Positions 3,862 to 62,945 of a stretch of DNA of 64,000 nucleotides are shown in pieces; the stretch's first letter is position 1; each line of letters begins with the position of its first letter. The position numbers and the translations under genes are program-made. Location: assembly GCA_949987565.1 (NCBI GenBank), contig OX465110.1, forward strand, positions 17,400,394-17,464,393. The letters run 5' to 3'. Origin of the DNA: Luidia sarsii (lineage: Eukaryota; Echinodermata; Asteroidea; Paxillosida; Luidiidae). A model generated the notes under the pieces. The model ran no database searches. It saw nothing but the letters and a program-made list of their open reading frames with translations, and was not told the origin of the DNA.

Positions 3862-3990
3862 ATGTCACATTCTCCTGATGACGGCCAGAGCATAATGGTC
3901 GAAACGTCGAGTTACCCTCAGGTTCTTTTCAGAACCATACCTCTTCCTTTAAGAGACCTGATACATGGTATTCACCGCAAACCTTCCTAT
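3862..3990 (+). repeat. Family 1 dispersed repeat with hammerhead-like hairpin
   Basis: Just beyond the stop codon of the MetE-like gene the sequence reads CTGATGA (3875-3881), stem GGCC (883-886 of 3-kb block) against GGTC (3897-3900), then GAAACGTC from 3901. The hairpin phrase GGTTCTTTTCAGAACC and a tail ATGGTATTCACCGCAAACC typical of family 1 follow. It may lie in the 3' UTR. Confidence 0.65.
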
Positions 3991-5140
3991 ATTGATTCAC
4001 CCACCATGCAAAGCCTTAAGTCTCATTTAATGTCACGTCAGTTTTTCTTTTGTTTTGTTTGATGTCAATGAAAAGTGAAAAGTCAATGAAAAGCTGCTCC
4101 GGTGGTGCCCTTTACTTCCACCCGTACCTTTGTCAAGATGGCAGCCTCCGTGGCATTTCAGTCTGGTGCCCGCTATCGACTTGTCTATTGGTTATATTAT
4201 GTCTATGGACAGGACACCAGAGTTTGAGCCAAATAATTTCTGTGTTTCCTTCCCCCTGCTGTTAAGCAATTGCATTATGACCCTCATGTATTTGGACACC
4301 CTTTCAATGGCTGATTAAGAAAAAAAAAGTAAAAAAACACACACACACCAAAAAAAAACTCCGCAAAAAATTGACCATGTAAAATTCACCCTGATATTTA
4401 TTCCAAACTTGCCCCGAATCTCATCCACATAATTTCTGATAATTCAATCAACCTTGCAAATTGCAACTCATTTTAAATTCTGTAAAAATAATATAAACAA
4501 AATTGTAAATTGAGTCCAGTTTGAATGATAGCTTCCCTGAATAACAATTGAGTAACAATCCATTGTTTCTGTCAATGAGGCAAGGTTGATTTGATTATGC
4601 ATTTATAAATATTTCTTGAGCTCGACATTAGAAAGACAGAAATGTCCCTTCATGACAGTTTGCGTGCATAATAATCATGCAAATGAATCTTTTTTAATTT
4701 CATAATTTATTCGTTTCATTTTTCAGATAAACAATACTGAATGTATTGCTTTCTCTCCTTAATGTAATTTTTCTACATTTATTTAATTTTATTTAGAGCA
4801 CATTTTATTTAAGTAAAACAACAGTGAGTAAGATTTCATCGCCAAACTTATCTGACAATCGCACAAATCTTAAAAAGTAACACAGCCTGAGGCATTTTTT
4901 AATAACGATCCTTTGGCAAAATGACAGCTGAATTGTAATCCCTAAACATAGCAGTCTCAGACTTGGGAAAAGTCTAAAAAAAAAAAAAAAAGAGACCACA
5001 AAACCACTTCTCCTTTTTTCAAATTGGTGTTTTTCCTGTGAGAGTTCAAAGCGATGTCAAAATCGAACAACACTGAGGGGAAATCAAGCAAAATGCTAGC
5101 CTCAATTCCAGCCTCCGTACAAAAAAGTGTCTGTCGGAAT
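3991..5140. other. Intergenic AT-rich DNA between convergent genes
   Basis: Between the MetE-like stop (3820) and the ACSF3 stop (5453). It contains (CA)n and poly-A runs around 4320-4360 and no ORF with recognisable homology. A minus-strand AATAAA (TTTATT on plus, near 4803) could serve ACSF3 polyadenylation, but the distance is long. Confidence 0.5.
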
Positions 5141-5144
5141 GACT

Positions 5145-5475
5145 AGCAGTCTCACTGCAAGATGTGGGCCAGTTTGAAAAAAAAAAAACACCCACACTGG
5201 CCAGATGGTAAGAACTTAAGTCTTGCAGCCCGCCTGGTCAGCTGAATAAAGTAGTTTTGGATAGATTGGGTGGTAGGGCTGCTACTCTGCTTCGAAGATC
5301 TCAGAATGCCAAGCAGCCACAATGTAAGATGTGGGCCAGTTGAAAAAAAACCAACCTATTGGTAAGACGGTAAGAATTTAAGTCTAGCAGCCCGGGTGGT
5401 CAGCTGAAGAAGTAGTTCAGGAGGTGCCCCGGTTAGTTGAAGGAGAGGGCTGCTACTCCGCTTCGAAGATCTCGG
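5145..5475. repeat. Tandem duplication of the ACSF3 3' end
   Basis: The segment from about 5157 (AGATGTGGGCCAGTTTGAAA) to 5290 is repeated from about 5325 to 5475 with the same order: GTAAGAAyTTAAGTCT, CAGCCCG, GGTCAGCTGAA, then GCTGCTACTC and GCTTCGAAGATCTC. The proximal copy is the true last codons and stop of ACSF3 (5453-5475). The distal copy at about 5267-5288 is a decayed duplicate of them. Confidence 0.8.
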
Positions 5476-9556: not shown

Positions 9557-9954
9557 TCTGCTTCACCTACAAGAAACAGACATACAATCTTAATAATAAG
9601 GCAGTGTACATTAAGCCGGCAATGGCATTCTTCCTGGAGGTCATTCCTGCTCATGTTTATGCAAATTCATGAATGCTCTTTACTCTGATTGGCCAAAGAT
9701 ACATTAATATGCATAAAGATAAGTGGGAACAAACTCCAGCAGAGTAACCCCTCAGGCAAAGGAAAAACTGGCTGGTAAGTTTAAAAAAAAATTTAAAAAT
9801 GGCCCCCCAAAAATGGGATTGGTCCGGGACTTGAGTCTTGAGTAAAATGACCAACCCGAGCTGTAATTAACAAAAACATCTCTTTCCGATATAGTAACCA
9901 CTAACAAGAAACCATGATAATAATCAATAATATCTCAACATTTAGTTGGCCTGA

Positions 9955-10150
9955 CATTTCGATAATAGTAGCACTAGCAGGACCTTTCTCAAACTCAAAC
10001 TAGGCAGAGTCAGATCAGTGCCTTTTGACTTTGAGTTTGAGAAAGGTCCTGCTACCAGTACCAACCTGTAGGATCGAAACGTCAGGCCCAAACAATTTTG
10101 AGATTTGAATTTTGGTAATTTTAGTCAGTAACTGGTAAGTAGTTTGCAAC
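9955..10150. repeat. Family 2 foldback element
   Basis: Arms read GGCCTGACATTTCGATAATA...GCAGGACCTTTCTCAAA and TTTGAGAAAGGTCCTGCTA...GGATCGAAACGTCAGGCCC, followed by the usual tail 'TTTTGGTAATTTTAGTCAGT' and 'TTTGCAACATTTTTGTAT'. Intergenic between ACSF3 and the ADP/ATP carrier gene. Confidence 0.8.
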
Positions 10151-12445
10151 ATTTTTGTATATTACCTAATTATTAAATTAATAATAATTAATATGATGAT
10201 TTAAGTTTTCAGTTTTACCGTGGAGGGTTTTACGAAATAGTTGCAGTTGCCTTCAAGTTCATGGGTACGGATTCAGAATGCAAGATATTCGATAAACACA
10301 ATGACCAAGATATTCCAGGAATTCCTTACCGTACCGCTGCAACTGAAGTGAATTTGGTCTCGTCATCAAATGAAGGTGCTCCTCAAGTCAACCATGCTCG
10401 AGTGAAGCTACTCATAATTTTCATAATCATATTTACCTAGTTTACGTAAACTACACAAGGGGAATCCTTGATTACGTAACCCACCCATGCCGGCTGCAGG
10501 TAAAGTAGATAATATGTTGCAATGACTGTGGCTGCAGCCGTAAGTAAACGAGAAAGTGCGCCCTCTCGTGGCTGTTTTCAGCTGCTCGTAATAATTATTT
10601 TAGTGGTGCACCCTTGTGGAGGCCGCTTGATAATTAATAGTTTTGGGACTTCTTGTATCGATCCTCACGATAATTTCTGGAAGAATTTTTTTTATTGTTC
10701 TTCTTTTTTTCTTTGTTTATGTCAGTCGAACAATTAATATGAAAATTAATGATAATGATATAATAATTATGATAAATTAATGATATATCGATATATATAT
10801 TATTTTATCGAATCAACCACAATTGCCCACAATCACACACAATCAGTCAACTACAAGTACAACTTACAAGTTCATTATAATTACAGAAATTATCAGTTTA
10901 ACTAAGCTCGCTATAAAAGCAGCCGTAAGCCCATTTTGCTATTGATAGTGTTAGTTGTCAACATGCAATAACTTTTACTAATTCATGTCAACGAGTTTTA
11001 TTTACTTTTGGGTCGGAAAATTAATAAACAAATTAATTTGAAACAAATTAAAACAGTTTTCCGCAGTGAGGAATGAGGTATATTGATTTTATTGGTATTT
11101 CCAAAATAATATGGTTAATATGCTTTAAACATGCATAAAAACCTAAATAATTTCCAGAAAATAGCACCCATTGAACGATGGGGGCGCCCTTTCCCCTCCT
11201 TTCGCTCGTGCCTAGCTCGAGTTAAATCGTCTTTAATGATATTCATATTTCTCATTCTCTAAATAATATATTATATAAAATATATAAATATGAATATTAT
11301 TCATTAGCATTTGGGAATTAGGATGTATTTATTGATACAACCAAATGAATTTCCTAAATAATTATACTTAAGCCATGGACCGAAGAGGGCGCCCTTGTCT
11401 CAATCCTTGCCAACATAATAAGAGTGATTACCTGAGTAATGTTCATAAATGTTTTTCCTTGATTTATATAATTATAATTATAAATTGGTGTTCTAATGAG
11501 AAAATAAGCCATTTCCCCTTCGCTATCTGGTGTATATGATAGCCTGTGTCATGATGTTTTTTATATGAATTCCGAAAACAATTATAATCTTTATTGAAAA
11601 AAAAAACCACTTAAGAATCAAAAGAAATATTTTTTTGCACACAAGTTGAAGAGCTCTACCCCTTCACTCCAGGCAAGATCCAATCATAACCCGTGGAATA
11701 TTGAATATTGATTATTTATTTGCATGAATTTCATTTTTTAACACAAAACAAAGGAAGCGGCTGGATCTGTTCTTTATTTCATCGTTTGAGTTCTTTATTT
11801 CATAAGTGGAATTATTATTGTGACAATGCAAGGTCTCATATTTCTATGCCCAAAAAATTAGGAAAAATGTTTACAACATATCTTCCGCTCTATACCAAAA
11901 TAATGTTAATTTCAAATAAAAAGTAAACAATACAAATTTAAAAAGGAAAAAAAATGGTTTCTTGTGTCAAGCTGACAAAATTAATTTAAACACATCGTCA
12001 AGATAATAGTTCGAATAATGTACATCGCTAACTAAATAAATTTCAGTTATTGTCTAAATTAGTTTAGCTAATCGAGAGTCTAAATAAAATGAAGCGAAAA
12101 ATATCAGAAGCTTTGTTCAGCTTTCTCGAGTCCAAACATTATAAATAAAATAGTTGACGCGTTTAGCTATTTAGTCCGAGTCCAAAATGTCGAATTTAGT
12201 TTATGTACCAAGTCATCCAGATATTGCCAATATTAGTTGATTTCTTCAGCTTTCGAGAGTCCAAAATATTATTGAAAAATAGTTGATTAATTCAGCTATA
12301 GAGTTCAAAATATTGTTGAAAATTAGTTGATTTGTCTAGCTACGATCAAGGTTGAGTCGAAACATATTCAAAATAAGTTGATTGTGTCAAAATGAGTGTT
12401 GGAGTATTATTAACTGATTATTTTGGTGGTGGAAAAAGGGGGTGG
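10151..12445. other. AT-rich intergenic region, no gene seen
   Basis: Long AT-rich DNA between the ACSF3 start and the ADP/ATP carrier stop. TTTATT motifs near 11772 and 11793 are candidate minus-strand poly(A) signals for the carrier gene. From about 12060 to 12385 there are degenerate 60-70 bp repeats around 'TTCAGCTTTCGAGAGTCCAA' and 'ATAGTTGATT'. No supported coding sequence. Confidence 0.6.
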
Positions 12446-12450
12446 GTGTT

Positions 12451-14609
12451 TTACAGAAGGGCCTTGATCTCGTCGTAGAGGACCAGCACCAGGGCGCCGC
12501 CCGTGCCCCTGAGCACGTTGGAGAAGGCGCCCTTGAAGAAGGCCGAGGCGCCCTCCTGCTTCAAGATCTTGCGCCAGCAGTCCATGGTGCCGCGGTACAG
12601 GACGTCGGAGCGGCCCGACTGCATCATCATGCGGCGCCGCACCGTGTCGAACGGGTAGCTGACCACGCCGGCCCCGGTGGTGACCGTCTGGGCGATCATC
12701 CAGCTCACCAGGATGTTGTTGTACTCGGACGGGATCAGGCCCTTGACCGTGTCGTAGGTGCCGAAGTAGGCGGCCCGGTAGATGATGATGCCCTGCACGG
12801 AGACGCCGAAGCCGCGGTACAGGCCGCGCGCGCCGTCCGAGCGGGCGATCTTGGTCAGGCAGTCGCCCAGCCCCTTGAACTGGCGGCCGCCGCCGTCCTG
12901 CCGGCCGATGTCGGCCGCCAGCCGGGTCCGGGCGAAGTCCAGCGGGTAGACGAAGCAGAGCGAGGTGGCGCCGGCCGCGCCTCCCGAGGCCAGGTTGCCG
13001 ACGAAGTAGCGGGCGAACTGGGCCCGCTTGTCCACGCCGCTCAGGAAGATCTGCTTGTACTTGTCCTTGAAGGCGAAGTTGAGCGCCTGCGTGGGGAAGT
13101 AGCGGATGACGTTGGCCAGGTTGCCGCGCCACAGCGAGGTGAAGCCCTGCTCGCGGACCACGCGCTGGAAGCAGTCCACGATGCCCTTGAACTGCTTGTC
13201 GGCCGCGATCTGGGTCGAGGCAGCTTGGACCTGTCGCCAAAAAAAGGACGAAGAAATAACTTGAAGGTTTGCACGGTGGAAGTACCAAGTTTGCGGTGAC
13301 ACCATGTAACATATCTCTTTTGAGACGGAGTGTGGCTCTGAAAAGAGCAGTTTGACCCAACGTTTAGTGCAGTGTACTCAGTCAGAAGACTTAAATTTCC
13401 TGACGAAGGGCAGAGTACACACAGTACTGCCCGAAACATTGGGTTAAACGGCCATTTTCACAGCCACACTCCGTCTAAAAGGTTATGCTTCATAATATGG
13501 TGTCAAAAACAAGTGCCGAAGAAAGATAGAAAGAAGGGCTTAAAGTGATGTGAAGAAGTTGCCGACTGCTCACAGAATTAAAATGTAATGATCAAAATGC
13601 GAATCTCTAAAGGTTCCATCCTAACACAGTACAGGACTTTTGTGACTGGTTCTGCTGTAGGACTGAAACGTCGGGCCAAGAGTGATAAAATCGGACAGAC
13701 GTATTGTTGAGCAATCAATTTGACCCAACACTTGTTTGGCAAACGTTCGTAACAAGTTCCCCTTGGGAAAAGGACACCAAAATATTATCATGACAGGCAA
13801 CTCTGAATCTTAGCTGGCAATAATATGGGCAAGGAATCGATGAGATTTTCCATTTGGATTAACAAGTTTTCCAAGAATCTTTGCGGTGACAAAATGTGCA
13901 TGAAATCTCTGCCGAGAAAGAGCTTGGCTCTGATAATGGCCAGGGACCGGGTCGTTTTCAGAGACACACTCGCTCTCGGAAGAGAAAATGCCCACGATGC
14001 CACCGCAAAAATGCAACATTGTTCGTCCACCACGAAAACCTTCGAATCACGACATGCACAGCTATACTGTCGACGCTCGGGGATAAGAATTTATAAGACA
14101 TGAAGGTTTGCATCTAGTGGAAATACTAGTACTAGTAAGTAGTAGTAGGCCTATGTGTAAGGTTTGCGGTCACACCACGTAGAACTTGAGAATAATTATA
14201 AGTGAATACATGACAAGGTGTCACCGCAATCCTTCCACGTTTTATAGATAAGACTTGACGGTTTGCATGTTGCAAATGATATACTACCCCTGTATAAAGT
14301 GGATCTTGGAAGGTTTGCAGTGACACCGTGTAGCACTTCTCATTCGAGAAGGAGCAACACTCCTTCTCGAAAGAGAATTGCTACACGGTGTCACCGCAAA
14401 CCTTCCACATAGAGAATTAGGGCTTGTTTTTTTTCTTATTTCGAATTCACCGGGCAGCCACCGTGAGAACGACTCCGCTCGGAACTCACTTGGAGGAGGA
14501 GCTTGACCCGTTCGATGGGCGCCACGGCCGTCTTGGAGATGGCGGCCGCCGTGCCGCCGGCCATCAGGTCCTTGAGGAAGGACGTGACGTCGAACGACTT
14601 GCCAGACAT
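12451..14609 (-). CDS. ADP/ATP translocase (mitochondrial adenine nucleotide carrier), complete
   Basis: Two exons, 14609-14490 (40 codons, start MSGKSFDV) and 13230-12451 (stop TAA 12453-12451), joined in phase 0 over a GTGAGT...ACAG intron of about 1.26 kb, giving 299 residues, the usual family length. Three mitochondrial carrier repeats are visible through their signatures PIERVK, PLDFART and PFDTVRRR. The ADP/ATP carrier hallmark RRRMMM starts near residue 238. The protein exchanges cytosolic ADP for matrix ATP across the inner membrane and has six transmembrane helices. Exon 2 is strongly GC-rich at third positions, unlike the AT-rich DNA downstream. The single early intron holds two inverted-repeat elements. 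Paralogue number (ANT1, 2 or 3) is not assigned because invertebrate copies do not map one-to-one on vertebrate ones. Confidence 0.96.
13262..13480 (+). repeat. Family 1 inverted repeat with hammerhead-like hairpin, in carrier-gene intron
   Basis: Contains GTTTGCGGTGACACCATGTA, TTTTGAGACGGAGTGTGGCT, and CTGACGA (13400-13406), stem GGGCAG (13408-13413) with CTGCCC (13427-13432), then GAAAC. Outer arms TTTGACCCAACGTTT and ATTGGGTTAAAC pair with each other. Confidence 0.75.
14307..14407. repeat. Near-perfect 101-nt palindrome (family 1) in carrier-gene intron
   Basis: TGGAAGGTTTGC at 14307 pairs with GCAAACCTTCCA ending at 14407; the arms include GTGACACCGTGTAGCA and TGCTACACGGTGTCAC and meet at GAGAAGGAGCAACACTCCTTCTC. 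A more degraded copy precedes it at about 14100-14235. Confidence 0.9.
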
Positions 14610-15235: not shown

Positions 15236-15239
15236 TGAG

Positions 15240-15440: not shown

Positions 15441-15474
15441 CCATTTCGAAAACGGCCTACAGCTCTATGAACTC

Positions 15475-18034: not shown

Positions 18035-18185
18035 AAAGACTTGAAGGTTTGCATGGTGGAAACAATTATTATTAATTGCTTTGTGGTGACACCATGTGTA
18101 TCATCTCTTTTGAGACTGAGTGTGGCTCTGAAAAGAGCCGGTGACTCAACGTTTCGAGCAGTGTGTACTCTGCTCATCGTCAGGA
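18035..18185 (-). repeat. Family 1 repeat with hammerhead-like hairpin
   Basis: On the minus strand: CTGACGA (18183-18177), stem GAGCAG (18175-18170) with CTGCTC (18161-18156), then GAAACGTTGAGTC, and a second hairpin GGCTCTTTTCAGAGCC. The GTGGTGACACCATG arm lies at about 18085. Confidence 0.75.
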
Positions 18186-18824
18186 GATGATTTATTCTTC
18201 ATGACGTGTTGATGCAAGATGAGAGACATTGAGAGCATGCTCAGAGATACGTGCGCCCGCCAATGAGCATATCAGAATAATGCGCGCATGCTCAGTACAA
18301 CCACAATACCCGTATGTTATCGCATCACTGAGCATCTCAAAGTATCCCACTGTAAGCTTTCGTTTGAGACAAAATGCCAGAGTACCGTAAGGCAAAAATC
18401 TTATCCAGTGCGTTTTCTTTTTGTGTTTGACTTCAATCGTCTCTCAACATGTTTCATGGAATAACAAAGCATTGAATGCTTACTATAAAAAAAAGCCTTG
18501 TCAGGTTTCCTCTGAATTGCACTTAATTTGCACGTCACATGACCCACAACTGACCAATCATTGGACAGGATCTACACAACCAGCGATGATGTCACCACTG
18601 ATCACCTATCCGTGGGTGGGGGGGTAGAGATAACTCAGTTATCTCAAAAACATCTTCTACAAAATATCATCTTTTGGGAACAACAAAATTCAAAAGAACA
18701 TTAAAAATTTACTCACATGATGGTGGATGGCCATTTAAAATGTAAAATAATGAAAACAGAATTTAACCACATTTAAGCAATGGAGAAGGGTAGGTTTGTT
18801 ATTTCTTCTCCTAGGGATGTATGG

Positions 18825-28000: not shown

Positions 28001-31000
28001 ACGTAATTGGCAGCTGAGGAGAAAGAAGAGAAGGAGGAAGAGGAGGGAGAGGAGGAAGATGAGGAGCAGAGGGAAGGGGAGGAAGAGGAGAAGAACGAAG
28101 AGGAAGAGTAAGAAGGCGAGCAGAAGGAGGGGGAGGAAGGGGAGGAGAAAGAAGAGGAGAAAGAAGAAGAGAAGGAAGAAGAGGGAGAGGAGGAAGAGGG
28201 AGACGAGGAAGATGAGGAGCAGAAGGAAGGGGAGAAAGGGGAGAAAGAAGAGAAGGAGAAAGAGGAAGAGGAGGAGCAGGAGGAGCAGGAGGGGGAGGAA
28301 GAGGAGAAAGAAGAGGAAGAGGAGGAAGAGGAGGAAGAGGAGAAAGAAGAGGAAGAGGAGGAAGAGGAGGAAGAGGAAAAGCAGAAGGAGGGGGAGGACG
28401 AGGGGCAGAAAGAAGAGAAGGAGCTAGACTCACTTGAGCAAGCCGTCGGCCAGGCTGTTGATCTTGTCCGAGAGCGACTCAAAGAGGCCGAAGACGCGCA
28501 GCTCCTCGCAGGCCACGGACAGCCAGAGGGGGTTCTGGGAGGAGTCCTTGCTCAGCAGGCTGGCCATCTGCTCTGCGTCCAGTCGCTTCTGGTACTTGCC
28601 CAGGGTCTCCTTGACAATGGCCTGGTGGTGAGGCGGAAGAGATGGGATCAGGGAAAGACCGGTACCCCTCCTCACACCGACATCAGGAATTTCATCGAAA
28701 TCCCGATACTGAGAATGCGGTACAGTCCGTTCACTGCGCTGTTTATAACCACTTTGCGCCGGAACCTCCGAATTTGGAGCGCCGGTGGTGATGCTATGAG
28801 CCACGCCCCCCTGAATATGGGCACCGCTTTTGTCCAGATTTTGAACAAAGACTCTTTTTCAGCCTACCGTAAGGCAATATATGCAGCACGACAAAAGCCA
28901 CACAGATGTCTGATTGCGCCAGGTTTGACTCGCTTCTGCACATAGGCCGTTTACAAAATGAAGGTCTAGGCTCGGGCTTAGGCTTCGGTCACATCTCTCT
29001 CACCCGTTATAATGTCACAGGCGTCTAGAACCAAGCCTTTTGGCCCCAGTTTCTTGCTGAATACTCTGTACTTTATCAAGCAAAAAAAAACCTTCAACCT
29101 CGGCGACAAACCACAACCTGGATTTGGAGGTTTTGTCAGACGGAGACAAAGCCTGAGCCCGAGCCTGCACCATGGATTCGTGAAGGGCTTAAGAAATGAT
29201 CCAATAACGTCTACATCATCATCAGTTTGAGAGGGAAAGTCAGGAAGGTTGATCTAGGCAATGCAGGGGAGGGGGGTGGGGCCTATTACCTCTCGAGATG
29301 TCATGTCCAGCGGGGTGACGTACAGCTCCACCGGCTTGATGGGCCGGGAGCGCAGGGTCTTGTGCTGAGGTGTCTCGTCGATCATGGAGAAGATGCAGCG
29401 CACCTGGGTGCTTAGCTTGTTGGGCAACCAGTTCATGACAGTGGACTCCTTGGACTCGTCAAACTGGGGGGGGGGAGGGAGGGAGAGAGAGGGGGACAAA
29501 TCCAAGGCCGCAGGATATCAATGAGGAAAGTCGGGGCCAGCGGTGGAAGAACATGATACAGGGCACCAGTGAACAGGGCAGGATGCCATGAACAATGCAG
29601 GATACCAGCGATGTTTACCAGGGGTCATCCTGACCGTATGTATAAGGCCCACCCTTTCTGGCTTATTGTGTAACAAATAGTATTATTGAGACAGGTCCTG
29701 CTAGGATCAAAACGTCAGGCCCACTAAATTTTAACAAATAGTTTTATTGTGCTTTTATCATTACAGGCTTTTGAATTGACATTGGAATAATTTCTGCATT
29801 CATTTCATTTCATACACACGCTACATGTACGTGGGTAGTTTATTCTTGTTTACATTGTAACTGTAGGCCTACATGGCCTAAAATGGCTGGGTTTGGTTTG
29901 CTCAGCAATTTCATGTGTTTGACAATTTTTCAGGTTGTTGTTTGGGTGTTTGAAGGGGTCTGGTGTGCCCATCTTTCAATTGGGTCTGGTGTGCCCATCT
30001 TTCAATTGGGTCTAGTGTGCCCAAATTTCAATTGGGTCTGGTGTACCCAACTTTCATTTAGGTCTGCTGTGCTCAACTTTCCTATGGGTCTGGTGTGCCC
30101 AAATTTCAATTGGGTCTGGTGTGCCCAAGGGGTCTGGTGTGCCCAACTTTCATTTAGGTCTGCTGTGCTCAACTTTCCTATGGGTCTGGTGTGCCCAAAT
30201 TTCAATTGGGTCTGGTGTGCCCAAGGGGTCTGGTGTGCCCAACTTTCATTTAGGTCTGCTGTGCTCAACTTTCCTATGGGTCTGGTGTGCCCAAATTTCA
30301 ATTGGGTCTGGTGTACCCAACTTTCATTTAGGTCTGCTGTGCTCAACTTTCCTATGGGTCTGGTGTGCCCAAATTTCAATTGGGTCTGGTGTGCCCAAGG
30401 GGTCTGGTGTGCCCCACTTGATTTTCTTTTTGTTATTTGCCAGTTTGCCCTGAATACAAAGTATTGGTATTCGGTAGAAATTGTTTCTGGCTGAATCAAA
30501 ATAAATTCATGCTGCATGGCATTTTGGCACAAAACATGATAATTACTGTCGTGGGTGACATTTTATTTTTAAAGTCTAAGAATAATTGCAGGATATCAAT
30601 GAGAATAACAGGGCACCAATGCAAAAAACAAGATACTGGTGAACAAAACAGGATACTGGTTAGAAATGCAGGTTACCACTGAAAAAACAAGGTACCAGTG
30701 AACAGACAGGGAAAACAGTAAAGAGTCGTTTTTCAGTTTCAGTTTCACCTGTATCCTGACCATCCACCTGTTTCCTGACCATTAACTGGTATCCGGTCTG
30801 TTCATTGGTATACGGTCCATTCACCAATATCTTGACCATTTACCGGTATCCTGACCATTCACCGGTATCCTGACCATTCACTGGTATCCGGTCCATTCAC
30901 TTGCTTTCCCATTTGGTTCTCTTGCATACATCCTGTTCATTGGTTCCCTGCCTACAGCACACCTGATTCTATGGAGCACTGACCTGATTGAGGGCGTCGA

Positions 31001-44302: not shown

Positions 44303-47300
44303 ATGGGCCGATGCCATCTGAGGCGGGCGGCCTGCCGTTGCCTCCTGGTTGCCCTGGCGATGCTGGCCGGCGTCCTCCTCTATGGCAGCCACCGGGCCGC
44401 GTTGGGGATGTGCAGCCGCAACGGCTCCCTGGAGATGCTGCACAAGCTGGTAACCGGCAGCCTAAAGCCGTGTTCACTTTGGACTCTTTATTTGTGTTGC
44501 TTAAAATTTAGTGGGCCTGACGTTTCGATCCTAGCAGGACCTTTCTCAAAGGCAGAGAGAAAGGTCCTGTTAGGATTGAAACGTCAGGCCCACTAAATTT
44601 TAAGATTTACATTTTGGTAATTTTAGTCAGTAAGCAGTTTGCAACATTTTTGTATATCACCTCTTTATTTGTGTGTGACAATTTAACTAGGCTTGGGCAA
44701 AATGTAAATCTGTGGCTCTGAAAAGAGGTGGTAACTCAATGTTTCGGGCAGTGTGTACGACTCACACAGTGAGTGCAGTCTCCTGACGACATTACCGGCT
44801 ATCTTCAGAACCACACACTCCTTCTCAAAAGAGACGTGTTGCATGGTATCACCGCAAACCTTCCACTTGGTATTTCCGCTATGCAAACCGGTATTATCTA
44901 CCGGTACTGTAGATAAGACTTCAAGGTTTCAACTTTCCATGGTAAAATAAAAGTTCCAATACATCTTCCTTGTAAAGGGATCATACTGTGCAATTGTGCA
45001 CATACATGTGTGAACAATGTACAGTGCATGTACATGTAAGACATGAGACTAGCAGAGTACACATAAACCTTCCGCTTCAGACAAAGCTGTTGTCGTGACT
45101 GTCCTCCGATTCTCGCTACAGTGGAACATCGCTATAACGAACATCCCGGGATCCATGAAAATTGTTCGGTATAATGTAGCAGTCGCTCGTTATAGCATTT
45201 GTGGCCTTATATTTTGTACACAAATTGGGAGCCAAAGGGCATGTTCGTTATAGCCGAATGTTTGGTATATATCGGCATTCGTTATAGCGACGGTCCACTG
45301 TGCTTTTGATTTGTCCGTTAAAAGTCAGGGAAAGGTCCGATAAAGAATGACCTTTTTTTAATCTCCATCTCCGCCGCAGTGCGCTCTGTACGAGGCGGGC
45401 CGGGCGGACGGCAACCTGTGCCCCCAGATCTGCGACGGCGTCTCGCTGGCCTACGAGACGTGCTTCAACCGGGCCGGCGGCAAGCGGGTGGTGCAGGCCC
45501 GGCTGGCCGGCCGGCGGCTGGTCCTCAAGTCGCGTCACGCCGAGCTGGCCGACTTTGAGCCTGTTTTCAAGGGCGTCCTGGAGAAATCCGGAGGCCCGGA
45601 TGAGCGGCGCATGCCGGCCGCGTCCTTCGGACTCATGGTGCTGGACCACGTCCGCTCCAAGTTTGGCCGGGAGATGGCAGCCGAGGTGATGGCGAGCATG
45701 AAGAAGAGGAAGAGGACGAAGGAGGCGGAGGTGGAGGTGGAGGAGGAGGAGAGGAAGATCTTAATGCATCGGCTGCTGTTCAGAGCCGACGGGGCCGGGG
45801 ACGACAACGACGAGCTGATGAGCAACTTCCAGATGAACAGCCTCTGGTCCCTGGTGCAGCAGGACGAGTTCCTCTTCTTGGTCCTGTTTGCCGACCTCAG
45901 CTTCTTCCCCGCGGTGTACGGCGCCTGCGGCCACATCTACGCCGAGGAGTACGCCCCGCCCGGCGCCATCCTCTACCCGGCCGCCGTCGCCGGCCGGGGC
46001 GCGGTGGCCGAGGGCTACCGAGCGGCAGCCTGGCCGGCCCGGGCCGCGGTGGCGGCGGGCATCCTGGAGGTCGTGGCGGCCACCGAGGCCGACTTCGCCC
46101 AGCCGCTGCACCTGTGCGACGTCAAGCCGGTCAACTTCGGCGTGAGCGCCGAGGACGGCGAGGTGAAGGCCATCGACGTGGACATCAGCTTCTTCGATCG
46201 GGTCATGGGCGACTTCCTGGAGCAGCCCAGCTGCGCGGCGGATGCCGACTGCGACTTCTTCGACTGCCATGGGCTCTGCAACACGGAGGCCAAGAAGTGC
46301 ACACGGCAGAGGACCAACAACAACTTCCAGGTGAAGGTCTTCACATATATAACTGCTGACAGACTACACTCATAAATCACCCCAAAATTGCCAATCTTAT
46401 ACCAAGTCAGATAAACATTGTATACGGCATTCAATGGTTACACGCTTGTGGCCGGTTACTTTAATTGGAAAAATCTGCATCCACTTTATGTGATCCCCGA
46501 ACTGCTGTAGCCAGGTTTACAACAATTGGTTGTTTGCATCTGAATGAAACCAGGGGCATGATCCCTGAAGATATATACGGCAAAGATTAGTTTACTATTT
46601 GGGAAGGCCAAGAGCACCGGTGTGCAAAACCAGAGGTACCAGAGTCTGGTACCTCATTGCCATTGACAACCATGAGTTAAAGAGCAAACGGAAGATGTAG
46701 CAGGCACAAATATCTGCCCTCCCAGGGGAAACGATAAATTCAAGAGTTTGGGGAAAAAAATTACGAGCAATGATCCTTAATAATACACAATTTTTTTTGG
46801 CTTCAACGACAAAAATGCAAATCATAAAACCTGCACAGGGCATTTCACAAAGCCTTACAATGCATCATAACTCAACGTACGATGGATATCCCACAGTATA
46901 ATTTTACAGGCCGTATGGTTTCTGTGCATCGCTCGTCGTTTTGTGATTGATCGTAAGTTATGATAAGTCTGATGATATTGACCACTGGGATGGATTTCTC
47001 AATGATGCATCGTATCCACCGGCCATAAGATTTTACAGGCAGCATTGTTTGTGCAATTGAAAAAAATCGACCGCTGATGTTACAATTCTAGCTGGACCTT
47101 TCCGTTTCCCCTCCCCCCCCCCTCACCCTCCCTCCCTCGCAGACCGTTTGCCAGGACATCTTCGGCTGGAAGTACGGCAGTCCCGGCCTGCTCCGCAACC
47201 CTCCGCCGGGCATCAGCGAGCGAGTCCACGAGCTGATCGATCGCTGCGTCCATCCGACCGAGGAGGAGCGAGTGGCCAAAGGGTCGACAACGGACACCTT

Positions 47301-49984: not shown

Positions 49985-50240
49985 AAATTGGTCAAGAAAA
50001 CTTTGACTGTACTGGGACTTCTGGATTAACATACCGGTACCCTTCATCTTCATCTGAAAAAAAAGTCCCAATGCAGTCAAATTACAGTAATATGCAAAAA
50101 TATTGCAAACTGTTTACTGACTAGTTATTGACCAAAATGCAAATAAAAAAAAAATAGGAGGGCCTGATGTTTTGATCCTAGCAGGACCTTTTTCAAAGCA
50201 AGAGAAATACAGGTATGTCCTGTTAGGATCCCTAATTTAA
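49985..50240. repeat. SINE-A tail plus decayed family 2 element
   Basis: TTGGTCAAGAAAACTTTGACTGTACTGGGACTT is the inverted SINE-A tail; AGGAGGGCCTGATGTTTTGATCCTAGCAGG and GGTATGTCCTGTTAGGATC are the two family 2 arms. Confidence 0.65.
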
Positions 50241-51826: not shown

Positions 51827-54800
51827 TTACACCGGTTCCTGCTTGGGTAGGTGTATAAGAACGGGCACCGAGGCCTGAGCCTGGGGCTGGGGCTGTGCCT
51901 GAGCCTGGGGCTGTGGCTGGGGCTGGTGGCCGGCCGGGGTGGACTGGCCAGTGGTCACGATGGCCGCGCCGGCCCCGGCCGGACTGCTGGCGGCCAGCTT
52001 GTAGCCGCTGCTGCCGTCCAGGTGGGGGCTGGCCGCGGCGGCCGCCGCGCTGGCCACCGCGGCCGCCAGGGAGTTGGGGGTGGCCGCCGGGTGGCTGCTG
52101 GCGGCCGGGTGGCTACCGTTGGCCAGATGCTCGGCGCCGGCCGGTAGGTGGGTGCCGTGGGGACCAACTGGGGTCTGCTGCTGGGCGGGATCATTGCTTG
52201 CACCTTTTAGAAAGAAAAAAAAACAGACAAGAGACCTTCCTCAATCTCTCGTTACACACAGCAAACCCTTAGCAGGGTTAAGGGTGGAAATAATTAAAAC
52301 AATTTATGAAACAGCAATGAAATTTTAGAACTGTCTTGGATTTGAACCCAGCAAATGCTGGTTTAAAGGACCAAAACAACATTGGGAAGATTGGGAAACA
52401 TTGATGTCAGTGCACAGATTTCCTTCTAATTTCCGATCTTCCCAATTTTGCATTGGGCCTTTAAACCAGCATTTCCTGGGTTCAAGACAGTTCTATAAGT
52501 GACCATATTTCATTTGACCATCATCTCAGTAAAACCATCCCCCCAAAACAAAATAAGTCCAGTGCGGACACAGCTCTAGACAAGCAGAACCCCTACCTAA
52601 CCCATCACCCCCACCTCCTCTAATCCTACCTCCCAGGACCGATCTCCTGCAGCAGGTTGGCTTTTTTTCTGTGTCGAAAGTCCAAGTGCGGACAGTGGTT
52701 AAATTTGACCATATTTCATTTGACCATCGTCTCGCTAAAACCATCCAAAAAGTAACAAAACAAAAAAAGTCCAGTGCAGATAGCGCTCTAGACAAGCAGA
52801 ACCCCTTTCTAACCCATCGACCCCCCCCCCCCCCCCGACCACCTCCTCTGATCGTACCTCCCAGGAGCATCTCCTGCAGTAGGTTGTCCACCTTGGCCAC
52901 GCCGAAGAGCCGGGCAAACTGGATCTGCTCGATCATCTGCCAGGTGATGCTCTGCAGCGGGGGGAAGAGGAGGAGGATCTCGCCGAAGCGGCCCCTGGAG
53001 TCGTACTGCCGGTCGTTGATGTAGTCCTCCAGGTGGATCTGGACCTGGTAGCGCAGGGCCTTGATCTTGTTGGAGTCGCTCAGGCCCTTAGCGTCTGATC
53101 ATTGAGCAAAGAAAAAACAAAACTGAATTAGAAAAACTGAAATCCAAAATCACAATATTCTTTCTTTCTTGGTGGGCCCCTCAGTTGAATTTGAAAGAAG
53201 CATTGGAAAAAAAATTGCTAGTTCTGTTCTGGCATTATATCGACCTGGCCACTAACCCGGGTCAAATGAGCCACTCACCTGGGTCAATGACCTGGGTCTA
53301 TGGGGGTCATGCACTGACCAGAAAAGGCATGTGTCAAAGGGTCACCAACCTGGGTTGACAGGACACTGAGCTGGGTCATGAGCAGGACCTGGGTCAAATT
53401 GGGGCCACTGACCTAGGTCAATAAGCCAATATAGGACAATGGGCTCGGCAACCCGGGCCAATGAGGGTTGCTGTGGTCTTGGGTCAATTATAGCTCACTG
53501 ACCCGGGTCGATGGGCTCACTGATCTGGGTCAATAAGCCCACTGACCTGGGCCAATGGGCTCACCGACCCAGGTCAACAAGGGTCTCGATCCAGGTCAAT
53601 AAGCCCACTGACCTGGGCCAATGGGCTCACTGACCCAGATCAACAAGGGTCCCGATCCAGGTTAATAAGCCCACTATCCTGTGTCGATGGCCTTACTGAC
53701 CCAGATCGATGGTCTCACCGACCCGGGTCGGCGAGGGTGACTGACCTGGGTCGAAGAAGACGATGGCCTTCATGCAGGCAAACTCCTGGTCGTCCAGCCC
53801 CACGTCCCGCATGGGCTTGACCAGCTCATCCAGGACGCGGCAGGCCACCCGGTTGATGTCCATCTGGTCGGGGCAGTGGCGGGGCAGGATGGTGTCCGGC
53901 CCCATGATGAGGTAGTCCTTGAAGGGCAAGGAGCGCTGGGCCGCCCCCAGCACCAGGTGCTCGCCGGCGTGGGCCCTCAACAGCGCCACCTAGTGGCCAA
54001 ACGGGGAGACCAGGAAACATGACGCCTTCAATGATCACATAATGCCAAAACGGCTCATGCACTGACAAAATCGACCAAAAATGGGAATATAAAAACAAAT
54101 TAGGGACTGCGTCTGACGTTTCGATCCTAGCAGGACTCTTTCTCAAAGGAACTTCTGTCGACCCAGTGCACGTCTGGACAGATTCCGCGCGTTGTGAATT
54201 GGCGGCAAAGTTGCAGACTCTTGAGGGCGCCGGCACTTTTGGGAATCGCCCGTATTGCACAGTGGAAGGATCATCTCTGAATGGGAGCTAGTGGGTGATG
54301 GACAGCTTTGACAGGCCCAATGATGGTGGCAGCACAGACCGCTTTTGGGCCAGAGCATACAGACTGGAACTTCCAGTTATCACTCAGGTTCTTTTCAGAA
54401 CCATGTAGCTCTTCTTTAAGAGACCTTAAACATGGTGTCACCGCAAACCCTCTCACATATATTCTTCTTACCTGGTCGTCCAGCGGCAGCTCACAGAAGC
54501 TGGGAATGTACTTGGCCCACTCCACCAGGATGAGCAGCTGCTGCTTCATGGTCTCACAGATGTCGTTCATGTTGGCTATCTTCTTGGTGGCCAGGTTGGT
54601 GTCGGACAGCGTCATCTGCGGTGAAATCTGCCGGCCGCAAACAGGCAACGGGGAGAGATCGAGAAGTACCGAAATCTGCTTAAGCACAAAATGCCCTGCT
54701 GACTGAAATCAGGTTGCCGTCCGAAGTTCCCCCCTATGTTTTATGCGAGGCACCAATGATTTCAATACAAGTTGGGTGCAGCAAGCATCTAGTGAAATAC

Positions 54801-56715: not shown

Positions 56716-56749
56716 CTGCGTCAAAATTAATTTTTAAAATACTAGTACA

Positions 56750-56835
56750 CACCTTTGAGAAAGGTCCTGCTAGGATCGAAATGTCAGGCCCACTAAATTT
56801 TAAGACTGTATGTTTGTAACATTTTTTTTGTATAC
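56750..56835 (+). repeat. Family 2 half-element just upstream of the HNF4 DNA-binding exon
   Basis: TTTGAGAAAGGTCCTGCTAG, GATCGAAATGTCAGGCCCAC, TAAATTTTAAGA and a TTTGTAACATTTTTTTTGTA tail, 35 nt from the acceptor of exon 56715. Confidence 0.82.
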
Positions 56836-56929
56836 ATACACGTATTTTATGTATGACTTTGTCAGTTTGTGAAAATTAATAGCTTTAGTTAAAATTTAAA
56901 TGATTGAACAAGTGTAATTGACCAATCAG

Positions 56930-57145: not shown

Positions 57146-57429
57146 TTTGGGGCTGCATTCCTCTATTTGCATGGTGGGTGAAAACAATTTACAGTGTAGG
57201 AGGGTTTGTAGTAACATCATGTATGAGTAAGGCCTCTTAAAAAAGAGGTGTGGTTCTGAAAAGAACCCGAGTGATTATTCAAAGTACCGGCCAGTATGCT
57301 CTGGCTGTCTGATCTTCTGAACATCCGAACGTACATGTACCCCCCCCCCCCATCCCTCCCCCAAGCTGCACTGATTCAAATCCACCACATGACCTCACCC
57401 AGCTCGGTGGTCAAGTGGTTAAACTACAA

Positions 57430-58685: not shown

Positions 58686-58784
58686 TCTTTTCAAAATGTG
58701 TACCCTATTCAATTTTTTGTTCTTTGAACAGTGAATAGGTCATCTACCGGTACTCGTGGTAGTTCTTGTCTAAATCTGCAAAAA

Positions 58785-60125: not shown

Positions 60126-60234
60126 CATTCTTGCCTGCTGTCTACATATATTTGCTTTGCCAAGTCCCACACAAGCTCAGATTGCAAGTTGTAAAATAGC
60201 CAAAGCTGAACCGCTAATGCAGGCTAGATGTACA

Positions 60235-60440
60235 TTGGTTATAAAACTGGATGGTTGATACACATGTATGTAGTTCCAAAATTCCTTGAATGCCTTTTTT
60301 TTTTCCAAAAAAAAAGAAGAAGGCAAAACTGACTGAGAACTTTTGAACAAATTGAGAAATTGGCAAAGAAAACTTTGACTGGATCGGGACTTGATGAACC
60401 TGGGACCTCTGGATTAACGTACATGTACACGTATCATTGC
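60235..60440 (-). repeat. SINE-A copy, minus strand
   Basis: AGTTTTGCCTTCTTC side, then GGCAAAGAAAACTTTGACTGGATCGGGACTTGATGAACC and CTGGGACCTCTGGATTAACG: the inverted SINE-A tail and B box. Confidence 0.68.
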
Positions 60441-61149
60441 TCTTCCATCATGTATGACATTGCCTCTGGCAAAGTAAGGGCAGTCTAGGGGTATGACAAT
60501 ATACTCCCCTGGCCAAATAAGGACCAGCAGAAATCGATTACATCACCATAAAAAAATTCAAAAAATCATGTGATCCTGTCTTTCGCACTGTCGTCGATAA
60601 GGAAACAAAATGATAAGGCTAAGTACGCATTGCCCCAGAAAACCCCCTGACATTACAAATCCCCCCCAAAAAAATAATAATTTCTAAGCGGGAAAAATTG
60701 ATAAGGGCTAACCAGTGGGGTCTACACACAATTGTTAATCCATTGTGTGGCGTTTGTTTACTTGGCAGATTCCTTCCAAGGGTAGGGAATATTTTCTTTG
60801 TTAAACACCACCCCACTAGTCGGCACCAACTCCTCCAATTTCGACACAGGGTGACCAATGTTTGCACAATGAAAACCTGATTGCGTCTGCGACATTTATA
60901 TAAACTTGTGAGAAAAGATTTGAATTGAAAATGGGGCTTATTGCAATCCCCCCCCTAAAAAAGTGACAAGCATAGACAAGATCCCCCCCCCCAAAAAAAT
61001 CCCTTGTCCCTCCCCTCCACTTTAAGATAAGATCATGTTAGTCCACTCAAATGTGGTCCGATGAAAAACAAAATTGCTATGAACTTTCGGAATTTTTTTT
61101 TTCCTTGAAGTAAATACCGTAAACAAAAACTGTTGCAAACTGCTCACTG

Positions 61150-61285
61150 ACTAAAATGACCTGCAATACATACAACTCAAAAGTTAGAGGGCCCGATGTT
61201 TCGATCCTAGCAGGACCTTTCTCAAAGGCAAAGAGAAAGGTCCTGCTAGGATCGAAACATCAGGCCCTCTAACTTTTGAGATGAA
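61150..61285. repeat. Family 2 foldback element, variant termini
   Basis: CTCAAAAGTTAGAGGGCCCG, ATGTTTCGATCCTAGCAGGA, CCTTTCTCAAAGGCAAAGAG, AAAGGTCCTGCTAGGATCGA, AACATCAGGCCCTCTAACTT. Outer arms differ from other copies but still pair with each other. Confidence 0.88.
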
Positions 61286-61419
61286 CATATCAATGTTGAG
61301 CTTCCCTTTTTGTTGAAACTGAGCACATAGAGATTCAATGCTTCTTCTGTGATGCTCGAGTGACCCCTCTCAAAGGCAGAATGAAAAGGAAAGAAAAGGA
61401 TAGGAAGGGGGAGAAGTGG

Positions 61420-61790
61420 AGATGGATCAAGGAGGAAAGGTGGTAGACAGACTAGGGCGAGATGGAAGGGAAGGGCAAGCAGTAGGGAAGGGACCAAGGG
61501 AGGAATTGTGGTACACAGACTAGGGTGAGATCAGAGGGAAGTGCAAGCAGTAGGGAAGGGATCAAAGGGGAAATGGTGGTACACAGACTAGGGTAAGATC
61601 AGAGGGAAGGGCAAGCAGTAGGGAAGGGCAAGCAGTAAGGAAGGGATCAAAGGAAGAAACCTGGTAGACAGGGTGTGGCTAAAGGGAAGGGCAAGCAGTA
61701 GGGAATGGATCAAAGGAAGAAAGCTGGTAGACAGTTACTAGGGTGAGATCTGAGGGAAGGGCAAGCAGTAAGTAAGGGATCAATGAAGGG
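61420..61790. repeat. GGGAAGGGCAAGCAGTAGGGAA array, about 60-bp unit
   Basis: About six imperfect units with ACAGACTAGGGTGAGATCAG and GGGATCAAAGG(A/G)GAAA, purine-rich. Confidence 0.9.
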
Positions 61791-62349
61791 AGAGCATATG
61801 AATCTTATTCTGGTCATTAACGCCACTGTCAGTAATTAGCAGTTTGCAACATTTTTGTATTGCTCTGAAAGAGGTAAACACAAATAAAAGCTTATACTGT
61901 ACATGTACATGTACAAGTAAGTCTCTGTACATAGGTTGGAGTTTGAACTTGCCTTAGGTTGTGGCTGAGCATAAAAAAACTGACTTTTTGACAGCTGCCC
62001 GGGCAAATATCACACGTTACAAATTCAGGAGAATCCAGACGGGTAAAAACAGTGCAAAAGTCCAAAAATCAATCCATTTTGGGAGGCTGAAGCCGATGAC
62101 TGTAAACCAACATCCCACACATACCAGTCTTACTTTTCTGTTTTGTCTTTTTTTGCTCTTGAGAAACAGAGGTAACCTATTTCATTGGCCACAGCTGGAC
62201 AAAGTTCAAAGTGCAAGAGTCGCGGCTTTCGTTCTTTCTTCCGAGAGAGGAAATACCCTCTCTGCAGTTGTGTCGAGGAGCAAAGGTTAAACAGAGTCAG
62301 TTATTCCAGTTAAGCACTGTCTGCACATTTTGAGGGAAACTAACCAAAT

Positions 62350-62640
62350 GGGTAAATTGACCATTTTAAGTCCAGTGCGGACAGCCCGGGAATTTTTCCC
62401 TGGTAAGCCGATCGACTTCAATCTGTCTGGTTAAATTGACCGATCAGTTTAACCGAGTCAAAAGTCCAGTGCGAACCTGATGTTTTAGTCAGTCGCTTTA
62501 TTTTTTACCAGTCGATGCGGTTATCTATCCACGTCAATGATCCAAGTGCAGACACTGGTAAAATTTGCCCATTGGAATGTCACCCACGGTCTCGGTAAAA
62601 AAAAAAAGAAGTCCAGCACGGACACGGCTTAAGTCACTAC
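62350..62640. repeat. AAGTCCAGTGCGGACA element
   Basis: TTTAAGTCCAGTGCGGACAG, AAAGTCCAGTGCGAACCTGA, GATCCAAGTGCAGACACTGGTAA and GAAGTCCAGCACGGACACGG. The same phrases flank the duplicated HNF4 exon end at 52545-52790, so the element took part in or preceded that duplication. Confidence 0.75.
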
Positions 62641-62744
62641 TGTCTCTGTCTGCAGCGTTAGTATAGCCAACGTTCTGACCACACATCTGCAGCAGCTGCA
62701 GTTGGCATTTTAGTAAAATCAACCTCTTACTAATTAATGGGCTA

Positions 62745-62945
62745 AACCGTGTTGAGGGCCCAATGCCTCGACCCTAGAAGGGCGCCTGTCTCAAAAAGGT
62801 CACTTGCCTTTGAGAAAAGTCTGCGGCCAGTTTGAGAAGGGTCCTGCTAAAGTGGGAAGGAAACGTTGGGCCCTCAACAATTTTTTTTCCCCTGATTTGC
62901 ATTTTTGTCACTCAAGTCAGTGAGCTGTTTGCAGCAACTGTGTGT
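62745..62945. repeat. Family 2 diverged foldback copy
   Basis: GAGGGCCCAATGCCTCGACC, CTAGAAGGGCGCCTGTCTC, TTTGAGAAGGGTCCTGCTAA, GGAAACGTTGGGCCCTCAAC and TTTGCAGCAACTGTGTG tail. Confidence 0.78.

What the first reader, a model, noticed from the sequence alone, without database searches (positions are those of the whole stretch)
3862..62945. Two dispersed repeat families share a covarying hammerhead-like hairpin
Family 1 copies read CTGAYGA, one spare base, a stem, then GAAAC (or CGAAC). The stem differs with compensation: GGGCAG/CTGCCC (13408-13432), GAGCAG/CTGCTC (18175-18156, minus), GGCCAG/CTGGCC (47884-47867, minus) and GGCC/GGTC (3883-3900). Family 2 arms give TTGAGAAA, GGTCC, TGCTA, GGATC, GAAACGTC (33144-33175 and others). 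Matching changes on both sides of a stem suggest selection on RNA structure. The frame CUGANGA-stem-GAAA is the catalytic core of hammerhead ribozymes, known from Penelope-like elements and other retroelements. Against full activity: one unpaired base before the stem, and I could not place stem III or the NUH cleavage triplet.
Basis: partly seen in the sequence, partly recalled or inferred. Interest (0 to 1): 0.75.

Follow-up and report, generated by a model that had tools for sequence, protein, structure and literature searches.

The report
Penelope repeats carrying hammerhead and histone hairpins
Two families of short repeats in a sea star genome look like leftovers of a Penelope-type jumping gene; both carry a stripped-down self-cutting RNA motif, and one also carries a close copy of the hairpin that normally ends histone messages, which would be new if it works.

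Summary
The hairpins are real and shared by two repeat families (7 descriptor matches; mean 0.005 in 200 resamples). They fit the published minimal type I hammerhead of Penelope-like elements (PLEs): CUGANGA, stem II, GAAACGUC, short stem I, helix III reduced to a loopless ACGU. Family 2 replaces core pair C3-G8 by U3-A8, a known natural covariation. Rfam hammerhead models do not match, an extra base precedes stem II, and activity is untested.

Both families behave as PLE pLTRs: head-to-head pairs, 12 of 21 family-1 pairs with 8-15-bp target-site duplications, a ~41-nt tail on exactly one arm in 18 of 21. Family 2 lies 213-238 nt downstream of 16 of 17 GIY-YIG fragments.

Its tandem 82-bp units begin exactly at the predicted cleavage site. 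Covariation rests on few subfamily founders. New variant of a known kind; the histone-type signal is the surprise.

The parts
3868..4023 (+). Family 1 unit: hammerhead-like core 3875-3908, histone-type stem-loop within 3916-3960, body and tail
   Evidence: (RF00032 26.7 bits, below cut-off)
18037..18190 (-). Family 1 unit, GAGCAG/CTGCTC subtype: core CTGACGA from 18183, GAAACGTT, GGCTCTTTTCAGAGCC and CAAAAGAGA purine box
   Evidence: RF00032 37.9 bits, above its cut-off of 34
13257..13392 (-). Family 1, left arm of a head-to-head pair, degenerate core, histone-type stem-loop
   Evidence: (29.3 bits)
13393..13548 (+). Family 1, right arm of the same pair, GGGCAG/CTGCCC stem
   Evidence: 48.7 bits
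47758..47899 (-). Family 1, left arm, GGCCAG/CTGGCC stem
   Evidence: 45.7 bits
47995..48146 (+). Family 1, right arm, partial core, stem-loop, body, tail
44711..44777 (-). Family 1, left arm of a pair
44792..44890 (+). Family 1, right arm; the hairpin is deleted between CTGACGA and TTACC
57151..57325 (-). Family 1 unit with degenerate core and GGTTCTTTTCAGAACC stem-loop
54346..54472 (+). Family 1 unit, degenerate core, stem-loop
8469..8568 (+). Family 1 fragment with stem-loop, no core
   Evidence: (27.5 bits)
13846..14049 (.). Family 1 old head-to-head pair (13943- / 13946+)
14251..14418 (.). Family 1 old head-to-head pair (14354- / 14336+)
290..371 (-). Family 1 fragment, body and tail
1606..1669 (-). 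Family 1 fragment with partial stem-loop
33043..33189 (.). Family 2 head-to-head pair (one arm with the long 3' extension), 12-bp target-site duplication CCCTGATACATG
44500..44661 (.). Family 2 head-to-head pair, 14-bp target-site duplication CTCTTTATTTGTGT
61120..61288 (.). Family 2 head-to-head pair, no clear duplication
9932..10166 (.). Family 2 pair; the right arm has a longer stem II (8 bp)
56748..56808 (+). Family 2 copy
54042..54156 (-). Family 2 copy
50154..50203 (-). Family 2 copy
33861..33955 (+). Family 2 degenerate copy
62803..62922 (+).
29678..29736 (+). Family 2 degenerate copy

Best explanation
Both families are non-autonomous remnants of Penelope-like retroelements: pLTR/tail units with a minimal type I hammerhead-type motif at the 5' end of the RNA. 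Model: (1) transcription starts 5-7 nt before CUGAUGA, about 31 nt after a TATA box (position inferred). (2) The RNA 5' end folds as stem I, CUGANGA or UUGANAA, stem II, GAAACGUC; the loopless ACGU can pair only with a second RNA, so cleavage after GUC needs a dimer or protein help (inferred). (3) A PLE RT/GIY-YIG protein starts reverse transcription internally at one of two sites, giving 3' ends with or without the tail (ends shown; mechanism by analogy with Anolis PAc). (4) Two cDNAs joined at their RNA-5' ends make head-to-head pairs inside an 8-15-bp target-site duplication (structure shown, mechanism inferred). (5) Family 1's histone-type stem-loop and purine box act as an SLBP/U7-type 3'-end or RNP signal, so the RNA need not be polyadenylated (inferred; weakest step). 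The confidence given is for the identity of the repeats, not for steps 2 and 5.
For: Structure: 88.9% of cells paired, core pair 9 C-G and 9 U-A of 18; descriptor 7 against 0.005; a family-1-only model has four family-2 copies among its weak window hits, E 0.034, 0.15, 0.37, 0.63. PLE anatomy: 12 of 21 family-1 pairs share 7 bp or more between flanks (8-15 bp, six of exactly 12; 5.7% of cross pairings), tail on exactly one arm in 18 of 21, both 0, none 3; 9 of 24 family-2 pairs with 8 bp or more (control 4.5%), with 12- and 14-bp cases in this window; family-2 neighbours 25 head-to-head, 4 tail-to-tail, 2 direct. 5' ends: of 71 core copies, 34 lose homology 0-7 nt before CTGATGA, 8 at 12-36, 29 carry the whole 40-nt TATA-bearing stretch. 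3' ends: 48 with tail, 40 tandem, 40 other of 128; the short end lies about 112 nt after the ATG (hand count), PAc's RT start 111-118 nt into its ORF. Family 2 is 213-238 nt downstream of 16 of 17 GIY-YIG fragments, same strand; relatives carry RVT_1, PF26215 or GIY-YIG. Tandem units start at GTC^GAG: 40 of 112 stem-loop copies have the CTATA|GA junction. Histone signal: RF00032; purine box at 15-17 nt in 81 of 97, random 0.5% at 13-18.
Against: No Rfam hammerhead match. The spare base between A9 and stem II is not in the canonical core. In family 1 a plain extended hairpin is computed more stable than the hammerhead fold (-17.6 against -12.1 and -13.9 against -9.9 kcal/mol; family 2 -11.7 against -10.8), and the double-hammerhead dimer lies well above the cofold minimum in all three cases (-25.3, -20.3, -19.9 against -38.5, -33.6, -31.2). 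Family 1's own autonomous PLE was not found, and its frame found no protein. The GIY-YIG Pfam hit is below cut-off (16.9 against 22.6 bits). The 8 long stretches look largely like copies of one duplicated block. The tandem junction may be one event. Three window family-1 pairs have no duplication. No RNA data. In PAc, hammerhead mutants did not affect insertion in vitro, and no reads begin or end at the cut site.
Confidence: 0.8

Rival explanations
1. The hairpin is a plain structural hairpin (RT- or protein-binding) in PLE-derived repeats that only resembles a hammerhead; no self-cleavage occurs in any setting.
For: Rfam hammerhead models miss it; spare base; in family 1 a simple extended hairpin is more stable and the double-hammerhead dimer is not the computed minimum; the core copies counted hold sequence upstream of the cut, so they came from uncleaved RNA (most were selected by queries that contain the core).
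Against: CTGANGA and GAAACGTC are kept while the stems change, and C3-G8 is replaced by U3-A8 across families; tandem units start exactly at the predicted cleavage site; family 2 has no comparable alternative hairpin.
Confidence: 0.4
2. The head-to-head repeats are MITEs or fold-back DNA transposons whose inverted arms happen to hold the hairpin.
For: Near-perfect palindromes, target-site duplications, many copies (1,635 first-look candidates, 40 scored).
Against: The arms are joined at the RNA-5' end with unequal outer ends (tail on one arm in 18 of 21), duplication length varies from 8 to 15 bp, tandem units lie inside one duplication (L031, L039), and family 2 follows GIY-YIG fragments at a nearly fixed distance; inverted pLTRs of this kind are described for Adineta Penelope (PMC3846280, passages).
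Confidence: 0.1
3. The histone-type stem-loop is chance resemblance or convergence on a PLE-protein-binding hairpin, with no SLBP/U7 role.
For: It lies about 55 nt from the inferred RNA 5' end, not at a known 3' end, and in the region a PLE protein needs (first 172 nt of the PAc ORF); 25 matches in six loci are all below the Rfam cut-off, 22 of them at 28.3-32.4 bits.
Against: In the 18144-18100 copy all 16 stem-loop bases are GGCTCTTTTCAGAGCC, 37.9 bits, E 1.7e-7 for the window; C-G/U-A compensation in the stem (4 and 13 of 17 rows); purine box at nearly the same spacing as in canonical RF00032 places of the same genome (15-17 against 17).
Confidence: 0.5
4. The repeats are classical metazoan retrozymes (HHR-delimited tandem repeats spreading as circular RNA).
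For: Type I HHR-like motif, short non-autonomous repeats, some tandem units; minimal PLE HHRs co-occur with retrozymes (PMC7761336, passages).
Against: In the 30 loci the direct tandem copies align only from query base 39 on, i.e. without the ribozyme; dispersed head-to-head pairs prevail.
Confidence: 0.07

Closest known systems
Minimal type I hammerheads in PLE pLTRs (Cervera and de la Pena 2014; paper not held, described in PMC7761336, passages)
   Same: Core, stem II, helix III without its non-conserved nucleotides, dispersed in thousands, located in pLTRs, may cleave as dimers.
   Different: One spare base before stem II in both families; U3-A8 in family 2; histone-type stem-loop right behind the ribozyme in family 1. 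Whether published PLE motifs share the spare base was not checked.
PAc (Poseidon of Anolis), PMC11167929 (main text read)
   Same: HHR at the pLTR/ORF junction, two internal RT start sites defining the tail, short end about 112 nt after the ATG here (PAc 111-118), C3/G8 core pairing. In the 18183 copy an ATG begins at A9, which fits the PAc description as I read it.
   Different: No long ORF follows in family 1a (stop after 24 codons, read by eye), units are short and solo; no histone-type signal is described in the sections read.
EN-containing Penelope of Adineta vaga, PMC3846280 (passages)
   Same: Head-to-head inverted pLTRs, palindromes at the junction, optional 31-bp tail on one inverted pLTR, 8-10-bp duplications, TATA/Inr in the pLTR.
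   Different: Here the pairs lack the ORF and carry the hammerhead-type motif and, in family 1, the stem-loop.
Histone mRNA 3' UTR stem-loop (Rfam RF00032)
   Same: GGYYCTTTTCAGRRCC followed by ACA or ACC, and a purine box 15-17 nt downstream.
   Different: Sits near the inferred RNA 5' end of a mobile-element unit, in tandem in some copies; no histone gene.
Natural HHRs with U3-A8 (PMC3088659 section 8)
   Same: Covariation of the C3-G8 core pair as in family 2.
   Different: Here it comes with a zero-loop helix III and a spare base.

Membership tests
Hammerhead ribozyme, minimal type I | CUGANGA core followed by stem II and GAAA | tested here: met
   Family 1 CTGANGA and GAAAC; family 2 UUGANAA with paired U3-A8. 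Decayed copies depart from it
Hammerhead ribozyme, minimal type I | Stem II stacked directly on A9/G12 (10.1-11.1 pair next to the core) | tested here: not met
   One extra base between A9 and stem II in all 18 rows of A1
Hammerhead ribozyme, minimal type I | NUH cleavage triplet with A15.1-U16.1 and C15.2-G16.2 | tested here: met
   A1, 18 rows: ACGU in 16, ACAU in 2; the base after U is C in 12, U in 4, A in 1, G in 1 (L027, which breaks NUH)
Hammerhead ribozyme, minimal type I | Stem I closing the core | tested here: inconclusive
   3 bp in family 1, 4 bp in family 2; 75% of cells paired; exceptions such as 10037 and L042
Hammerhead ribozyme, minimal type I | Match to an Rfam hammerhead model | tested here: not met
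   No hammerhead family at E up to 10 in the window or in two short stretches
Hammerhead ribozyme, minimal type I | Self-cleavage | not testable with these tools
   Needs transcripts
Penelope-like element pLTR | Head-to-head inverted arms inside one target-site duplication | tested here: met
   12 of 21 family-1 pairs, control 5.7%; 9 of 24 family-2 pairs, control 4.5%, some low-complexity
Penelope-like element pLTR | Optional 30-40-bp tail on one arm | tested here: met
   ~41 nt on exactly one arm in 18 of 21, both 0, none 3; 'tail' means an alignment reaching reference base 140
Penelope-like element pLTR | Associated RT and GIY-YIG ORF | tested here: inconclusive
   Family 2: GIY-YIG fragments 213-238 nt upstream in 16 of 17, relatives with RVT_1, Pfam GIY-YIG below cut-off. 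Family 1: no ORF found
Penelope-like element pLTR | Promoter in the pLTR | tested here: inconclusive
   TATAAG-type box about 31 nt before the common 5' end; no RNA data
Histone 3'-end signal (RF00032) | Stem-loop at or above the Rfam cut-off | tested here: met
   18144-18100: 37.9 against 34; the other five window matches and all 25 in six loci are below it
Histone 3'-end signal (RF00032) | Purine-rich downstream element 10-20 nt after the stem-loop | tested here: met
   81 of 97 copies at 15-17 nt
Histone 3'-end signal (RF00032) | RNA ends after the stem-loop; SLBP/U7 dependence | not testable with these tools
   No expression data; U7 search not answered
Metazoan retrozyme | Tandem repeats delimited by type I HHRs | tested here: not met
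   Tandem 82-bp units hold no HHR

The most novel reading that the evidence does not exclude
A Penelope-type pLTR has taken over a complete histone-type 3'-end signal (stem-loop plus purine downstream element) and couples it to a dimer-only hammerhead: element RNAs end without poly(A) under SLBP/U7 control in S phase, two RNAs are held together through the palindromic ACGU helix III, and this RNA dimer is the template that is inserted as the head-to-head pair; HHR-cut RNAs are copied in series to make the 82-bp tandem units that start at the cleavage site.
Probability: 0.2. Interest if true: 0.85.

Novelty: new variant of a known kind. Interest (0 to 1): 0.6.

Why it matters
The role of minimal hammerheads in Penelope-like elements is called a mystery in PMC7761336 (passages read). 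These copies tie the motif to the inferred RNA 5' end, to paired insertions with target-site duplications, and to tandem units that begin at the predicted cut, so the role becomes testable from genomic scars. No paper joining a histone-type 3'-end signal to a retroelement showed up in the five searches that looked for it (open-licence PMC papers only, listings and abstracts seen). If functional, it would show a mobile element using the replication-coupled, poly(A)-free mRNA pathway.

Tried and rejected
Viral contigs were scanned for CTGAYGA-gap-CGAAACRTYGRGTY: 24 hits. In the 130 bases printed after each match I saw no histone-type stem-loop; they look like chance matches in phage-like sequence (by eye). 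A stem III of 2 bp with a 5-nt loop (GAAAC-GTTGA-GTC) was considered first; it was dropped because stem I then cannot form, whereas GAAACGTC followed by GAG/AGGC gives a paired stem I in both families. Canonical RF00032 places in the genome were taken at first for host histone genes; 0.7 kb upstream of three of them holds no histone frame that I recognise and no Pfam histone hit in the one frame per place that was scanned, so that reading was dropped. One such frame had no match in phage records. A protein search with the family-1b frame found nothing. A Pfam accession recalled from memory (PF26215) is not in the library of the genome search, though proteins carry it. The prediction that some solo family-1 copies start exactly at GAG was not borne out in the copies at hand. 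Three window family-1 pairs show no target-site duplication.

My notebook says about 25 RF00032 places share 43.0 bits; the table shows 16.
Full report
Host. The window is part of G000, a 470.9-Mb, 227-contig assembly. An ADP/ATP carrier frame in the window is 92% identical to Patiria miniata and 87% to Asterias amurensis over 85% of its length, so the host is taken to be a sea star.

Observation. A strict descriptor finds 7 sites against a mean of 0.005 in 200 resamples, 6 with stem I against 0. Aligned on structure, 18 hand-picked rows give 96% paired stem II cells and 75% paired stem I cells; the core pair C3-G8 is C-G in 9 rows and U-A in 9. Covariation exceeds shuffles and slid controls, but 'pairs with a change on both sides' does not, because the changes come from a handful of subfamily founders. 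A model trained only on family 1 has four family-2 copies among its weak window hits (E 0.034, 0.15, 0.37, 0.63), with one unrelated place at 0.49 between them.

What the motif is. Reading GAAAC-GUC as core plus cleavage triplet with no stem III loop puts CTC/GAG (family 1) or GCCT/AGGC (family 2) in the place of stem I. This is the minimal type I hammerhead that lacks the helix III nucleotides, reported in PLE pLTRs and as thousands of dispersed motifs that may act as dimers (PMC7761336, passages). ACGU is self-complementary, so helix III can form only between two RNAs. The U3-A8 core of family 2 is a recorded natural covariation and such ribozymes are active in vitro (PMC3088659 section 8). 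Points for caution: a base is inserted between A9 and stem II in all 18 rows; no Rfam hammerhead model matches; and energy models prefer other folds, clearly in family 1 and for all three dimers computed. In PAc the hammerhead cleaves only with the protein present, and its mutants do not affect insertion in vitro (PMC11167929, main text read).

What the repeats are. Copies often sit as head-to-head pairs. In 30 genome loci and the window, 12 of 21 family-1 pairs share 7 or more bases (8 to 15, six of exactly 12) between left and right flank, against 5.7% of cross pairings. Exactly one arm carries a ~41-nt tail in 18 of 21, both in none, neither in 3. These loci were the best matches to a family-1a query, so they are biased to well-kept copies; the three window pairs in that set show no duplication. 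Family 2 gives 9 of 24 with 8 or more bases (control 4.5%; some are low-complexity and some loci are related), including 12- and 14-bp cases in this window, and 25 head-to-head against 4 tail-to-tail and 2 direct neighbours. Inverted pLTRs, junction palindromes, a one-arm tail, 8-10-bp duplications and TATA/Inr are described for Adineta Penelope (PMC3846280, passages).

PLE link. Eight 9-10-kb stretches hold 17 fragments of a GIY-YIG protein; 16 are followed by family 2 after 213-238 nt on the same strand, one after 695 nt. The stretches look mostly like copies of one duplicated block, so this is few independent events. The frame matches Lytechinus and Apostichopus proteins, some with RVT_1, PF26215 or GIY-YIG domains; Pfam GIY-YIG itself is below cut-off. 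Family 1's own ORF was not found.

RNA ends. Of 71 core copies, 34 lose homology 0-7 nt before CTGATGA, 8 at 12-36 nt, and 29 carry a 40-nt stretch with a TATAAG-type box about 31 nt upstream; the latter were mostly selected by a promoter query. Of 128 3' parts, 48 run into the tail, 40 into another unit, and 40 end otherwise, 35 of them within 10 nt after CCTTCC. The short end is about 112 nt after the ATG of CTGATGA (hand count); PAc starts reverse transcription 111-118 nt into its ORF, and its tail is the stretch between two start sites.

Tandem units. Some family-1 copies hold six further 82-bp units, e.g. L031. In 40 of 112 stem-loop copies the unit is preceded by CTATA, and the boundary is CTATA|GA where the first unit reads CGTC|GAG. 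So the unit runs from the predicted cleavage site to the short 3' end. If this is one founding event, the chance of the coincidence is about 1 in 82.

Histone-type signal. Directly behind the ribozyme, family 1 has GGYTCTTTTCAGARCC. Rfam scores RF00032 at 37.9 bits (cut-off 34) at 18144-18100; five further window matches and all 25 in six loci are below the cut-off, 22 of these 25 at 28.3-32.4 bits. The stem changes U-A to C-G in 4 of 17 rows. An A[AG]GAGA box follows with GAGA at 15-17 nt in 81 of 97 copies (68 at 15; 15 have none in 40 nt); 0.5% of random window 40-mers have it at 13-18. Copies share ancestry, so this shows the family's make-up, not 81 events. In five canonical RF00032 stretches read from the same genome, 4 of 6 stem-loops have it at 17. 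I cannot call those places histone genes: upstream of three there is no histone frame that I recognise. A role in 3'-end formation or SLBP binding is inference. The position near the RNA 5' end is odd; in a full pLTR-ORF-pLTR element the downstream copy would lie at the 3' end.

Verdict. Real, ordinary in kind (a PLE minimal hammerhead), unusual in detail. Mobility and PLE identity are well supported (0.8); ribozyme activity is about even; the histone-type function is perhaps one in three.

Noticed in passing
G000, RF00032 places; L093-L096, L098-L101: Of 134,613 first-look candidates 75 were scored; 75 of the 76 matches are above cut-off (35.3-45.4 bits), 16 with an identical 43.0 bits, several as inverted pairs 2-9 kb apart (e.g. 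C3:8946158- / 8953170+). Upstream of three there is no recognisable histone frame; L099 holds a 150-aa frame without a Pfam match. Possibly another multi-copy element whose genes end in histone-type signals.
   Followed up: partly
L085-L092; places: A multi-kb block with opposed PLE GIY-YIG fragments, family 2 and one family-1 unit recurs mostly near contig ends (C11 21-23 of 23.2 Mb, C5 0.1-1.3 Mb, C19 0.02-0.5 Mb, C17 0.65-1.1 Mb, C4 26.8 of 27.2 Mb; exceptions C11 18.4 Mb and C3 16.6 of 28.1 Mb), perhaps subtelomeric.
   Followed up: no
window 36997-37296 and 6243-6320: 18-bp tandem arrays of the type GCCTTTGAGAAAGGTCCT: amplified stem I/core of family 2.
   Followed up: no
window 33671-33598 (-) and 26860-26933 (+): tRNA-like matches (38.1 and 28.4 bits) inside a ~147-bp inverted repeat pair, probably a tRNA-derived SINE.
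   Followed up: no
window 43896-44019: Near-perfect 124-bp palindrome that Rfam reads, below cut-off, as a microRNA precursor on both strands; a fold-back element of another family.
   Followed up: no
family 1 promoter-side region, L055-L084: TTCCCGCC boxes (E2F-like, recalled) and a TATA box upstream of the common 5' end; part of the region is duplicated in tandem in L067 and L076.
   Followed up: partly
window 44711-44890; L097: Family-1 arm with a deletion from CTGACGA to the TTACC behind the cleavage triplet, removing the hairpin and GAAAC; L097 lacks the stretch between GAAACG and the stem-loop.
   Followed up: no
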